Under the pieces are notes generated by a model that ran no database searches, was not told the origin of the DNA, and worked only from the letters and a program-made list of their open reading frames with translations. The translations under genes were made by a program, and so were the position numbers. Shown here one piece after another: positions 2,728 to 16,353 of a DNA stretch of 64,000 nucleotides. Position 1 is the stretch's first letter. The number at the start of each line of letters is the position of its first letter. The stretch comes from Gammaproteobacteria bacterium (GTDB taxonomy: Bacteria > Pseudomonadota > Gammaproteobacteria > Arenicellales > Poriferihabitantaceae), in NCBI GenBank assembly GCA_024644945.1, contig JAHEGU010000002.1, positions 62,001-126,000 of the forward strand. Direction: 5' to 3'.

Positions 2728-4728
2728 ATGAGTAAAGTTAGCAGGCGCGACAAAGCCAATGCCATTCGTGCTCTAAGCATGGATGCGGTCCAGAGAGCAA
2801 AAAGTGGTCACCCTGGAGCGCCGATGGGAATGGCTGATTTTGCCGAGGTGTTATGGAGTGATTTTCTAAAACACAATCCAAACCATCCATCCTGGATCGA
2901 TCGGGACAGATTTGTCCTTTCCAATGGGCATGGTTCCATGCTGTTGTATTCGTTATTGCATTTGACCGGGTATGGTCTGGAAATCGAGCAACTTAAAAAC
3001 TTTCGACAACTTCACTCGAAGACGCCAGGACATCCCGAATATGGTGATACTCCCGGTGTCGAAACCACGACCGGGCCGCTCGGTCAGGGAATCTCAAATG
3101 CCGTAGGCATGGCAATTGCCGAGCGTACATTAGCAGCCCAATTCAACCGGCCCGACCACGAAGTCATAAACCACCGCACGTGGGTATTTCTTGGTGATGG
3201 GTGTCTGATGGAAGGGATTTCTCACGAGTGCTGTTCCCTTGCAGGAACCCTTGGCCTTGGTAAGTTGATCGCATTTTATGACGACAATGGCATTTCTATT
3301 GATGGCGAAGTGGAAGGTTGGTTTACTGATAATACGGTAAAGCGATTTGAGGCATACGGCTGGCAAGTCGTGCCTGAAGTGAATGGTCATAATTCTGACT
3401 CTATAACTCATGCTATAAAAGCCGCGCTGGAAGAAACCGATAAACCAACTTTAATCTGCTGCAAGACGGTTATTGGTTATGGTTCCCCCAATAAACAAGG
3501 TAAGGAGTCTTCCCATGGATCGCCCTTGGGGGAGGACGAAGTGGCACTTGTCAGAGAAGAATTGGGATGGGAAAGTGATGCGTTTGTGATACCCCCTGCA
3601 ATTGCTGACGCCTGGAACATGCAGGAACGCGGATCTGCGGCTGAAGCAGATTGGCAGCAAGGCTTTGACCTGTATGAGGCAGCTTATCCTGGGCTCGCAC
3701 AGGAATTGAAGCGAAGGATGGACGGCAATTTGCCGACCGATTGGGCCAGATTATCTGCTAACAAAATAGCGGAGATTAGCAACAAAGCCGAAGACGTTGC
3801 GACTCGCAAGGCTTCGCTGAACGCGTTAAATGCGTTCGGGCCAGATCTGCCAGAACTGATCGGTGGTTCTGCGGATCTAGCCGGATCTAACTATAGTATT
3901 TGGTCTGGTTCTATGGATATAAAAGAAAACCATGGCGGTAACTATATTTATTTCGGGGTCCGTGAGTTCGGCATGTCGGCTATCGTCAATGGAATAGTAT
4001 TGCATGGCGGTTTCAAGACTTACGGAGCCACGTTTCTGATGTTTTCCGATTACGCGCGTAACGCTCTTCGTATGGCTGCGCTGATGCAAATACCTAGCAT
4101 TTTTCTGTTTACCCACGATTCAATTGGTGTTGGAGAAGATGGCCCTACTCACCAGCCGATAGAGCAAACGGCAAGCTTGAGGATGATCCCTGGCATGTCG
4201 GTATGGAGACCATGTGACGGTGTCGAGTCTGCAGTGGCCTGGCAACAGGCATTCGAAGCGCGCAGCGGTCCTGTATCTTTGATATTTTCAAGGCAGAATC
4301 TGAAACATCAACCTCGAACACCGGAGCAAATCGAAGCAATTAGTCGAGGTGGGTATGTGCTGAAAGATTGTGATGGCGAACCAGAAGCAATTGTGATTGC
4401 AACGGGTTCAGAGGTGGAATTGGCAACCGGTGCTGTTAAGATATTGTCACAACATCGTATTCGGGTGGTATCAATGCCTAGCACCGATCGCTTTCTGGAT
4501 CAGGACGAGGCTTATCGCCAGTCGGTTTTGCCTGACAGCGTGACCAACAGGTTACTTGTGGAAGCCGGGGTCACGGATGGTTGGTGGAAATTCATCGGTC
4601 TCAAAGGGCGCGTAATGGGAATCGAAAGGTTCGGAGAGTCTGCACCTGCTGGTGAGGTATTCCGGCACTTTGGATTAACCGAGGAAGGAGTTGCTAAAAC
4701 CCTCCAGGAAATGTTGAAACCGAATTGA
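2728..4728 (+). CDS. tkt: Transketolase
   Basis: 666 aa; [54 protein letters not shown]. Confidence 0.97.
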
Positions 4729-12229: not shown

Positions 12230-12850
12230 TTACACAATAACTGGCGCCAACTCAAGGTAGCCATCGTATATAAGTTTGAGCGCGACATAGAAAATAATAG
12301 CCAGGCCCAAATAACCAATCCAGCGATATTTTTGCAGGATATTGGCAATCCAGTTAGCAAAAAACATCATAAATAGAATAGAAATAGCCAGACCTATAAC
12401 CAGCAATCCGCTGTGTCCATCGGCGACACCGGCAACTGCAATGACATTGTCGAGTGACATCGATAAATCGGCCACGATGATCTGAAAAATCGCAGATAAC
12501 AATGGTGGGTTTTCATGTTCTGAGATCTCTTGGGACTCCGAGGCTTCAGATATGTCAACGGCTTCGCGCAGTTCCTGCCAAAGCTTCCAGCATACCCACA
12601 GCAAGAGCATACCGCCTGCCAAGGCCAGCCCCTTGATCGCGAGCAATTGCACCGTGAGCAAAGCGAAAGCCACTCTAAGAAAAACAGCGGCCCCAACCCC
12701 GTAAAGTATGACTTTTCGGCGGTATTCAGGTGAGAATCGAGACGCTACCAGACCGATCACGATGGCATTGTCACCAGCTAAAACCAGGTCGACAAACAGG
12801 ATTTGCAGAAGCTTGGAAGCTTGATCTAGGAATTCCATAAAAGGGTCCAT
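12230..12850 (-). CDS. TerC/YjbE-family integral membrane protein
   Basis: FVDLVLAGDNAIVIGLVASRF and ADLSMSLDNVIAVAGVA are typical TerC family motifs. Confidence 0.9.
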   Translation of the reverse strand: MDPFMEFLDQASKLLQILFVDLVLAGDNAIVIGLVASRFSPEYRRKVILYGVGAAVFLRVAFALLTVQLLAIKGLALAGGMLLLWVCWKLWQELREAVDISEASESQEISEHENPPLLSAIFQIIVADLSMSLDNVIAVAGVADGHSGLLVIGLAISILFMMFFANWIANILQKYRWIGYLGLAIIFYVALKLIYDGYLELAPVIV

Positions 12851-14159: not shown

Positions 14160-14627
14160 TCATTGCACCCTGATCAGCAGGGTGCCAGAGGCGAGATCAT
14201 GCCATGTTAGCCTCTTCTGGTTTGTTAGTGCCCATAGAAAACCCAAACCGAGCGATGACCATGAAATCATCGCGACAAAAAACCGAACTAAGGCCTGCGA
14301 CCAAGTTGAATTTGCCCCAGCCGGGGAGTTACTGCGACGATCAATAAGACGAATTTTCCACGCTCGCATACCAATCGTTTGCCCTCCATGTGTCCAGAAC
14401 CAGCCAAAGAAGAGGAATGCCACGGCAAATAAATAGATTAACCGAATACCCTGGCTAACCCACTGCGGCCACTGATCATCAGGCAGCAATGGCACGGGTT
14501 GCCAAGCGACAAAAATCAGGCATATCAACATCAGTCCGTCGTAAAGAATAGCGGCGAGTCGACGCCAAAGCGGTGCGGCAACTAATTTGAATTCAGTTGC
14601 GGGGGACTTTTCGTTATTGGATTGCAT
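14160..14627 (-). CDS. RDD-family membrane protein
   Basis: PLWRRLAAILYDGLMLICL, GGQTIGMRAWKIRLIDRRSNSP, RLTWHDLASGTLLI. Confidence 0.85.
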   Translation of the reverse strand: MQSNNEKSPATEFKLVAAPLWRRLAAILYDGLMLICLIFVAWQPVPLLPDDQWPQWVSQGIRLIYLFAVAFLFFGWFWTHGGQTIGMRAWKIRLIDRRSNSPAGANSTWSQALVRFFVAMISWSSLGLGFLWALTNQKRLTWHDLASGTLLIRVQ

Positions 14628-14669
14628 TTAGCGACCTAAGTCATTGTTTTGTATCTTTACGCGCAGAAG

Positions 14670-14863
14670 TTATGCACATTGGTGTTCTTATAAAGATCGG
14701 ATTCGCCGATTTTTTAAAGATAAAGTTCAAATTTAAATAGTCAAGATAACTTATTGAATGTAATATATAAAAAATAATTTTCTTATGGCTAGCACAAGTT
14801 AGTAGGTAGACCGAATCGTACCCTGTCTACGGCTGCACAGAGTTATCCACAGAGTTATCCACA
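14670..14863. promoter_or_regulatory. Candidate DnaA-binding region: TTATGCACA (14670-14678), AT-rich tract, then tandem TTATCCACA boxes (14843-14851, 14855-14863)
   Basis: Read directly in the divergent intergenic region between the RDD gene and the FAD oxidoreductase gene. Confidence 0.5.
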
Positions 14864-14973
14864 TTTTGGCTTCAGAGGTGACGTGACAAATATATGGAGG
14901 CCATAAGACTAAATCGGAGTGTAATCGAACTCGCTGCTGTTAAGCGCAATAAACAGGGGGAAGATATGGAGAT

Positions 14974-16353
14974 ATGGGTGTGGCTTTGAGTAGAATCCGA
15001 TGTGCGCCGAAATTGCCTACTATGATTTTTTCCAGCGAATCCCCTGTTACATTCAATGACGAGCTCGCCAATGAGACCGATGTGGTGGTAATCGGGGGTG
15101 GGATTATCGGTGTATCAACTGCTTGGTTTCTAACAAAAGCCGGTGTCAGAGTAACGATTTGCGAAAAAGGAAGGATTGCGGGCGAACAATCGAGCCGCAA
15201 TTGGGGCTGGGTCAGGCAGCAGGGCAGGGATGAAGCTGAGCTGCCGATCATGATCGAAAGCAATCGGATCTGGCAGACTCTTTCTGAAGAGATAGGATCA
15301 GATACAGGATTTCGGCAATACGGGGTGATGTATGTTGCAGAGTCAGAACAGAAAATGGCCGAATTTAGAGACTGGATCGAGCTCGCAAATCGCTATGACC
15401 TGAAATCGGTCCTCCTGACTAAGCGGGAGATTCAGGACCAAGTGCAAGGATTCGAAGGAGCATGGGAGGGAGGGGTGATTACTCCAAGCGATGGTCGGGC
15501 AGAGCCTTTTATTGCAGTACCGACCCTAACAAGAGATTGTCAGAGAAGGGGCGCGTTGATCAAAGAAAATTGCGCTGTCCGCGGTATCTCAACCCAAGCT
15601 GGACAGATCGCGGGCGTGATTACTGAGCACGGTGAGATCCAATGCCGGGCAGTGGTTTGTGCCGCCGGCGCCTGGTCATCTATGTTCACCGGTCATGTGG
15701 GATTATCTTTTCCGCAATTGACGGTGAAGTCAACGGTAGCCAGAACCGCGAGGGTGCCAGAGGGGTTTCTAGGAAACGCGGCCTGTGAAGACTTTGCATT
15801 GAGGCGCCGCCAGGATGGCGGTTATACCTTGGCCCCCTCCGGTATTCACGAGCATTTCATCAATCTCGACAGTTTTCGGTTTTTTAGGGTGTTCCTGCCT
15901 AACTTGATTGAATCCTGGAGTGAGACCGCGCTCAGACTAGGTGGTGATGCGCCAGGGGGGTGGAATGCGATCAGAAACTGGAGCGATGACGAGTTCTCAC
16001 CGTTTGAAGCAAATAGAGTATTGAATCCGATACCAGCGGAATCCACCTTGGTCGAATTGCGCGAACGTCTTGCGCGTCGTCTACCTGCTCTGGGCAGTAT
16101 TGAATTTGTCGAAACCTGGGCCGGAATGATTGATACCACACCGGACGTGGTACCAGTAATGGACCAGATCTCATCAATACCAGGATTCTTCTTGGCGAGC
16201 GGATTCAGCGGTCACGGGTTTGGAATTGGCCCCGCCGCAGGGCGTGTGATGGCGGACCTGGTGCAAGGCAATTCTCCGGGCCACGACCTAACTCGTTTTA
16301 GATTTAGCCGATTTAGTGACGGAAGTAAGCTCGACCGTGGGCCGTCGCTGTAG
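14974..16353 (+). CDS. FAD-dependent oxidoreductase (DAO/glycine oxidase-like)
   Basis: VVVIGGGIIGVSTAWFLTKAGVRVTICEKGRIAGEQSSRNWGWVRQQGRD; C-terminal FLASGFSGHGFGIGPAAGRVMADLV. Confidence 0.88.
   Translation: MGVALSRIRCAPKLPTMIFSSESPVTFNDELANETDVVVIGGGIIGVSTAWFLTKAGVRVTICEKGRIAGEQSSRNWGWVRQQGRDEAELPIMIESNRIWQTLSEEIGSDTGFRQYGVMYVAESEQKMAEFRDWIELANRYDLKSVLLTKREIQDQVQGFEGAWEGGVITPSDGRAEPFIAVPTLTRDCQRRGALIKENCAVRGISTQAGQIAGVITEHGEIQCRAVVCAAGAWSSMFTGHVGLSFPQLTVKSTVARTARVPEGFLGNAACEDFALRRRQDGGYTLAPSGIHEHFINLDSFRFFRVFLPNLIESWSETALRLGGDAPGGWNAIRNWSDDEFSPFEANRVLNPIPAESTLVELRERLARRLPALGSIEFVETWAGMIDTTPDVVPVMDQISSIPGFFLASGFSGHGFGIGPAAGRVMADLVQGNSPGHDLTRFRFSRFSDGSKLDRGPSL

What the first reader, a model, noticed from the sequence alone, without database searches (positions are those of the whole stretch)
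14628..14973. Divergent AT-rich intergenic region with a tandem pair of perfect DnaA boxes plus a third
TTATCCACA occurs at 14843-14851 and again at 14855-14863 (12-bp period, same strand); TTATGCACA (fits TTATNCACA) lies at 14670-14678, with a strongly AT-rich tract (about 14710-14790) between. A perfect 9-mer is expected about 0.5 times per 64 kb on both strands under uniform composition, so a tandem pair is unlikely by chance. Candidates: replication origin, DnaA-titration/reactivation locus (datA/DARS-like), or DnaA-regulated divergent promoters. The neighbours (RDD, FAD oxidoreductase) are not classical oriC neighbours.
Basis: partly seen in the sequence, partly recalled or inferred. Interest (0 to 1): 0.6.

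Follow-up and report, generated by a model that had tools for sequence, protein, structure and literature searches.

The report
datA-like DnaA control site
This short non-coding stretch is probably not a replication origin but a conserved docking site where the replication-starting protein DnaA and the DNA-bending protein IHF would meet, built much like E. coli's datA "off switch"; a sister site beside the gene priA carries the core of E. coli's DARS "on switch", and sites of this design recur in gamma- and betaproteobacteria far from E. coli.

Summary
The boxes are real and exact: TTATGCACA 14670-14678, TTATCCACA 14843-14851 and 14855-14863, around an 81-bp tract with 84% AT. The locus is not oriC: no GC-skew change and no dnaA, mnmG or rpmH nearby. 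It is conserved with its spacing in all 5 genomes of the genus and beside the same RDD gene in 20 of the genomes examined. An unreported IHF-type site, TAACTTATTGAAT (14747-14759), lies 96 bp before the tandem pair. In RDD-linked loci an IHF match sits at this spot in 11/14 (0.21 expected by shuffling). E. coli datA has the same order, orientation and IHF-to-box distance (97 bp).

The genome holds one other such cluster, upstream of priA. It adds an inverted box at exactly +26 (the 12/14-bp geometry of the E. coli DARS core) and a Fis-type site at exactly -66. In a class-wide search using the DARS core alone, nearly all hits also had the distal box, IHF and Fis sites at these offsets.

Best reading: a datA-type (DnaA-inactivating) site paired with a DARS-type (DnaA-reactivating) site at priA. 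Architecture and conservation are shown; biochemical function is inferred. New variant of a known kind.

The parts
14670..14863 (+). whole datA-like element: distal DnaA box - IHF-type site - tandem DnaA boxes (194 bp)
   Evidence: conserved spacing in relatives
14670..14678 (+). distal DnaA box TTATGCACA, 173 bp before the tandem pair
   Evidence: -170 to -173 in the genus
14747..14759 (+). IHF-type site TAACTTATTGAAT (1 mismatch to YAANNNNYTGATW), start 96 bp before the pair
14760..14790 (.). A/T tract next to the IHF-type site, part of the 84% AT stretch 14710-14790
14831..14839 (+). weak box-like GGCTGCACA in 12-bp phase before the pair; not conserved in relatives
   Evidence: sequence
14843..14851 (+). 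first DnaA box of the tandem pair, TTATCCACA
14855..14863 (+). second DnaA box of the tandem pair, TTATCCACA, 12-bp period
14160..14627 (-). RDD-family membrane protein gene, the conserved neighbour of the element
14974..16353 (+). FAD-dependent oxidoreductase (DAO) gene; neighbour within the genus only

Best explanation
The element is a datA-type DnaA control site. Three head-to-tail DnaA boxes flank an IHF site in fixed orientation and spacing. IHF would bend the DNA sharply so that DnaA on the distal box meets DnaA on the tandem pair. [quoted passage not shown] Its partner in the same genome, upstream of priA, carries the DARS core (two head-to-tail boxes plus an inverted box) with Fis and IHF sites and would do the opposite, promoting ADP release and DnaA reactivation. 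Shown here: boxes, IHF-type site, spacing, conservation, two-class split, presence of ihfA, fis, hda and dnaA genes. Inferred: protein binding, looping, ATP hydrolysis, cell-cycle role.
For: Same box order and orientation as E. coli datA: box - IHF (TAAnnnnTTGATW on the box strand) - box. IHF-to-box distance 96 bp here, 97 bp in datA; box-to-box 173 vs 162 bp (datA read). IHF match at -94 to -100 in 11/14 RDD-linked loci vs 0.21 expected by dinucleotide shuffles (P about 2e-19, ignoring kinship), 0/14 in the opposite orientation. The inverted box and Fis-type site that mark DARS-type elements are absent here (5 and 4 mismatches) but present at priA: inverted box in 4/20 RDD-linked vs 26/28 priA-linked loci, p 2.5e-7; Fis 3/20 vs 24/28, p 1.1e-6. 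IHF-alpha over its curated cut-off, Hda and Fis genes are in the genome. Literature: minimal datA = DnaA boxes 7, 2, 3 in one direction plus one IBS; spacing matters (PMC5742627, PMC4585315).
Against: No binding or activity data. In datA the tandem pair (box 7 + box 2) lies on the other side of the IHF site; here it is on the box-3 side. The IHF site of this genome has 1 mismatch, and in 8 of 20 RDD-linked loci the best match has 2-3. In two other families of the order (G027, G035) the RDD-linked element has a perfect inverted box and Fis site, and G028/G038 have an inverted box, so the datA-like form could be a DARS-type site that lost box I. Distance to oriC cannot be measured in this 152-contig assembly.
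Confidence: 0.6

Rival explanations
1. A DARS-type (DnaA-reactivating) site, either degenerate or working without inverted box I.
For: It shares the backbone with the DARS-type priA element, and the RDD-linked locus is DARS-type with inverted box and Fis site in G027 and G035. G010 and G017 have an inverted box displaced to +28 (sequences).
Against: Inverted box I is a defining part of the DARS core (PMC5742627, PMC8682772). It is absent in 16 of 20 RDD-linked loci, and the Fis site in 17 of 20, while distal box and IHF site are kept.
Confidence: 0.15
2. A passive DnaA sink: a titration locus with no catalytic effect on the bound nucleotide.
For: High-affinity boxes, one locus per genome, not at oriC.
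Against: Titration needs neither a fixed IHF site nor fixed spacing, and both are conserved.
Confidence: 0.12
3. A DnaA- and IHF-regulated divergent promoter for RDD and/or the downstream gene.
For: It lies in a divergent intergenic region; the distal box is 43 bp from the RDD start; RDD is the conserved neighbour.
Against: The same geometry occurs next to many unrelated genes in other lineages; the downstream gene changes between genera; promoter matches are few and weak (3 found, 1.2 expected).
Confidence: 0.1
4. The chromosomal replication origin oriC or a second origin.
For: Perfect DnaA boxes beside an 84% AT tract.
Against: Cumulative skew rises steadily through the locus over 158 kb; oriC-type neighbours are absent; in G024 the skew minimum is at dnaA/mnmG; same-spacing elements in three other chromosomes lie 0.70-0.78 of a half-chromosome from dnaA.
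Confidence: 0.03

Closest known systems
datA (E. coli DDAH site, glyVXY-queG region)
   Same: Head-to-tail DnaA boxes on both sides of one IHF site in the same orientation; IHF-to-box 96 vs 97 bp; a 12-bp tandem pair is present; no inverted box at the DARS position and no good Fis match at -66.
   Different: The tandem pair is on the opposite side of the IHF site; box-to-box 173 vs 162 bp; neighbour is an RDD gene, not tRNA-Gly genes; no counterparts of datA boxes 1, 4, 5 recognised.
DARS1/DARS2 (E. coli DnaA-reactivating sequences)
   Same: The priA-linked sister element has the core box geometry I-II-III (offsets 14 and 12 bp, box I inverted) and IHF and Fis sites.
   Different: The finding itself lacks inverted box I and Fis. 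In E. coli DARS2 the IHF pair fitting the published IBS1-2 (L194 3229-3257, 3 bp apart) lies on the box-I side of the core with FBS2-3 beyond it; in the priA-type element IHF and Fis lie on the box-III side at datA-like distance. Published DARS2 conservation concerns E. coli relatives at a similar genomic position (PMC4245941, PMC8682772); DARS-like sequences are also cited for V. cholerae (PMC6090056).
DnaA-box clusters of Bacillus subtilis and Streptomyces
   Same: Non-oriC clusters of DnaA boxes that restrain initiation, as cited in PMC10950094.
   Different: From background knowledge, those are not described as depending on an IHF bend at fixed spacing.

Membership tests
datA / DDAH element | Head-to-tail high-affinity DnaA boxes on both sides of one IHF site | tested here: met
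   14670 | IHF-type 14747-14759 | 14843, 14855, all +
datA / DDAH element | IHF-to-box spacing as in datA (97 bp) | tested here: met
   96 bp here; 94-99 in most relatives
datA / DDAH element | Additional low-affinity head-to-tail box (box 7) adjacent to box 2 | tested here: not met
   No box 12 bp before the distal box in the RDD-linked loci; the tandem box is on the other side instead. I place datA box 7 at L195:3733 because 3733-3915 is exactly the published 183 bp (inference).
datA / DDAH element | IHF-dependent DnaA-ATP hydrolysis and effect on initiation | not testable with these tools
   needs biochemistry
DARS | Core of three boxes with box I inverted, offsets 14 and 12 bp | tested here: not met
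   5 mismatches at +26 in the finding; the priA-linked sister meets it with 1 mismatch
DARS2 | Fis site(s) required together with IHF | tested here: not met
   4 mismatches at -66 in the finding; 0 at priA
oriC | GC-skew switch at the locus | tested here: not met
oriC | Classical neighbours (dnaA, dnaN, rpmH, mnmG) | tested here: not met
   neighbours RDD, FAD oxidoreductase, MFS, TerC; dnaA on C73, mnmG on C100
DnaA-regulated promoter | DnaA-dependent transcripts starting in the region | not testable with these tools
   only weak consensus matches

The most novel reading that the evidence does not exclude
datA and DARS, studied mainly in E. coli and close relatives, are two forms of one widespread module of Gamma- and Betaproteobacteria (distal DnaA box - IHF at about -97 - tandem boxes), switched between 'inactivate' and 'reactivate' by gain or loss of an inverted box at +26 and a Fis site at -66. 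Many genomes would carry one of each; in the window's order they sit at the RDD gene and at priA.
Probability: 0.35. Interest if true: 0.8.

Novelty: new variant of a known kind. Interest (0 to 1): 0.62.

Why it matters
How bacteria outside the E. coli group reset DnaA between rounds of replication is largely open, and DARS2 has been described as conserved in gammaproteobacteria related to E. coli. A DNA signature with near base-pair-exact spacing lets one find candidate on/off sites in many genomes, including betaproteobacteria, and test them directly. Finding both types in one genome with a shared backbone suggests how two opposite activities could have arisen from one element, and the link to priA puts a candidate initiation-control site beside a replication-restart gene.

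Tried and rejected
oriC: rejected by skew and neighbours. Fis site in the finding itself: scanned, absent. Box-7-like site next to the distal box: scanned, absent. I first took a perfect IHF match on the mutH side of E. coli DARS2 for the published IBS; the pair fitting IBS1-2 lies on the box-I side instead. A strict class-wide pattern with perfect IHF consensus found only 5 of 276 genomes, too strict to measure prevalence. Rfam and tRNA scans of the window: nothing. Literature searches for DnaA boxes upstream of priA, DARS-like and datA-like elements gave no earlier report of these elements, but the library lacks most subscription papers, including Fujimitsu 2009.

Full report
OBSERVATION. 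The gap 14628-14973 lies between an RDD gene (PF06271) and a DAO-type oxidoreductase (PF01266). The AT-rich tract is real (84% AT). The window lies in a 3.79-Mb, 152-contig genome. From contig-length matches of relatives (G022:C103 with JAPYNK010000191.1, titled Arenicellales; G013:C303 with JAALKB010000052.1, titled Gammaproteobacteria) it is probably an uncultured gammaproteobacterium near the Arenicellales (inference). In this genome the tandem pair has one exact copy, here, and one copy with 2 mismatches, on contig C34 upstream of priA, with no match to the reversed control. The listed TTATNCACA sites (100 of 104) form a triple only at these two loci.

NOT AN ORIGIN. dnaA is on contig C73 and mnmG on C100. 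Cumulative GC skew climbs through the locus across the 158-kb contig without a turn, and falls on both sides of the priA element on C34. In an order-level relative (G024) one 251-kb contig holds the priA-linked element (22 kb), dnaA (118 kb) and mnmG (127 kb), and the skew minimum is at about 125 kb. Elements of the same spacing in three chromosomes held as one large contig lie 0.70-0.78 of a half-chromosome from dnaA. The true oriC of the window's genome was not located.

CONSERVATION. The pair (up to 3 mismatches) occurs in 36 of 40 relatives. In all five genomes of the genus there are two loci: A, beside RDD (the finding), and B, beside priA. Across the order I could assign 20 RDD-linked and 28 priA-linked elements; 14 genomes have both. 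The FAD oxidoreductase is a neighbour only within the genus, RDD far more widely. The neighbours differ widely; PriA is the commonest (18). Some non-proteobacterial hits lie beside dnaA and are probably true origins.

ANATOMY. Aligning 55 of these loci on the tandem pair showed position-specific conservation between the boxes, which resolved into an IHF-type site (YAANNNNYTGATW, box strand) near -98 and a Fis-type site (GNNYANWWWNTRNNC) at -66. In 96 proteobacterial loci an inverted DnaA box lies at exactly +26 in 54 and elsewhere in the 40 bp scanned only once. A Fis-type site with at most 1 mismatch accompanies it (37/54, against 5/27 without the inverted box, p 4e-5). The IHF site is common in both classes at -95 to -100. 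Relatedness is not corrected for in these tests. As a partly independent check, 21 matches found class-wide with the core alone (two tandem boxes plus inverted box; 19 of 276 genomes, 0 in the reversed control) almost all proved to have the distal box at -176 to -191, IHF at -95 to -100 and Fis at -65 to -67, none of which was in the search pattern.

COMPARISON WITH E. COLI. Reading K-12 directly: datA has box 2 (L195:3745), IHF TAACCTATTGATA and box 3 (3907), all in one direction; the IHF site starts 97 bp before box 3. DARS1 has boxes at 3108(+), 3122(-), 3134(-) of L196: offsets 14 and 12 with one box inverted. The priA-linked element has precisely this geometry (pair 12 bp apart, inverted box 14 bp further). 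The finding does not (5 mismatches at +26, 4 at the Fis position) but has the datA backbone. Published work defines minimal datA as boxes 7, 2, 3 in one direction plus one IBS, with spacing important, and DARS by an inverted box I plus, for DARS2, IHF and Fis (PMC5742627, PMC4585315, PMC4245941, PMC8682772).

STATISTICS FOR THE FINDING'S OWN FAMILY. In 14 RDD-linked loci the IHF motif with at most 1 mismatch lies at -94 to -100 in 11, against 0.21 expected from dinucleotide shuffles of each interior, and in none in the opposite orientation. In the wider set of 20 it is 12 within -93 to -101. The inverted box (4/20 vs 26/28) and the Fis site (3/20 vs 24/28) separate RDD-linked from priA-linked elements (p 2.5e-7 and 1.1e-6).

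PARTNER PROTEINS. The genome encodes DnaA, IHF-alpha above a cut-off that among the 14 controls only one genome passes, Hda and a Fis homologue (48% identity, 102-aa frame). G005, in which no Fis homologue was found, also lacks the Fis site in its priA-linked element (3 mismatches): one case, suggestive only.

MECHANISM AND LIMITS. The simplest reading is that A works like datA and B like DARS. Shown: sites, spacing, conservation, two classes. Inferred: binding, looping, hydrolysis, reactivation, timing. The main doubt is that in G027 and G035 the RDD-linked element is DARS-type with inverted box and Fis site (G028 and G038 keep the inverted box), so A could be a DARS-type site that lost box I; and the tandem pair is on the opposite side of IHF compared with datA. 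It therefore fails strict membership of datA (box 7 position) and of DARS (box I), and is filed as a new variant that most likely works like datA.

Noticed in passing
L035:10060-10274 (G000:C34), upstream of priA: Second element of this genome: box TTATACACA at -180, perfect Fis consensus at -66, tandem boxes, inverted box at +26 (DARS-core geometry); its IHF match is weak (2 mismatches) in this species but perfect in G004.
   Followed up: yes
L194:3571-3583 and 3593 (E. coli DARS2, mutH side): A perfect match to YAANNNNYTGATW (read on the - strand) lies exactly 97 bp from DARS2 box III, on the side opposite to the pair that fits the published IBS1-2, with a TTTTCCACA box beyond; possibly a relic of the same backbone, possibly chance.
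   Followed up: partly
L242 (G250:C209:4937-5351), L128, L051: Duplicated elements: two DARS-type elements 380 bp apart in G250; two copies 0.8 kb apart upstream of priA in Herminiimonas fonticola; two copies 1.7 kb apart in a MAG labelled Alphaproteobacteria.
   Followed up: no
G005 (L049): No Fis homologue found in this genome and no Fis site in its priA-linked element, although relatives have both.
   Followed up: partly
window 12230-12850 and L194:4421-5134: A TerC-family gene (PF03741) lies 2 kb from the finding; E. coli ygdQ beside mutH and DARS2 is annotated as PF03741 too. Probably coincidence.
   Followed up: no
L034:9008 (G000:C73): A single TTATCCACA on the - strand about 210 bp upstream of dnaA, plus a TTTTCCACA in the dnaA-dnaN gap; possible dnaA autoregulation or part of a degenerate oriC, which was not located in this genome.
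   Followed up: no
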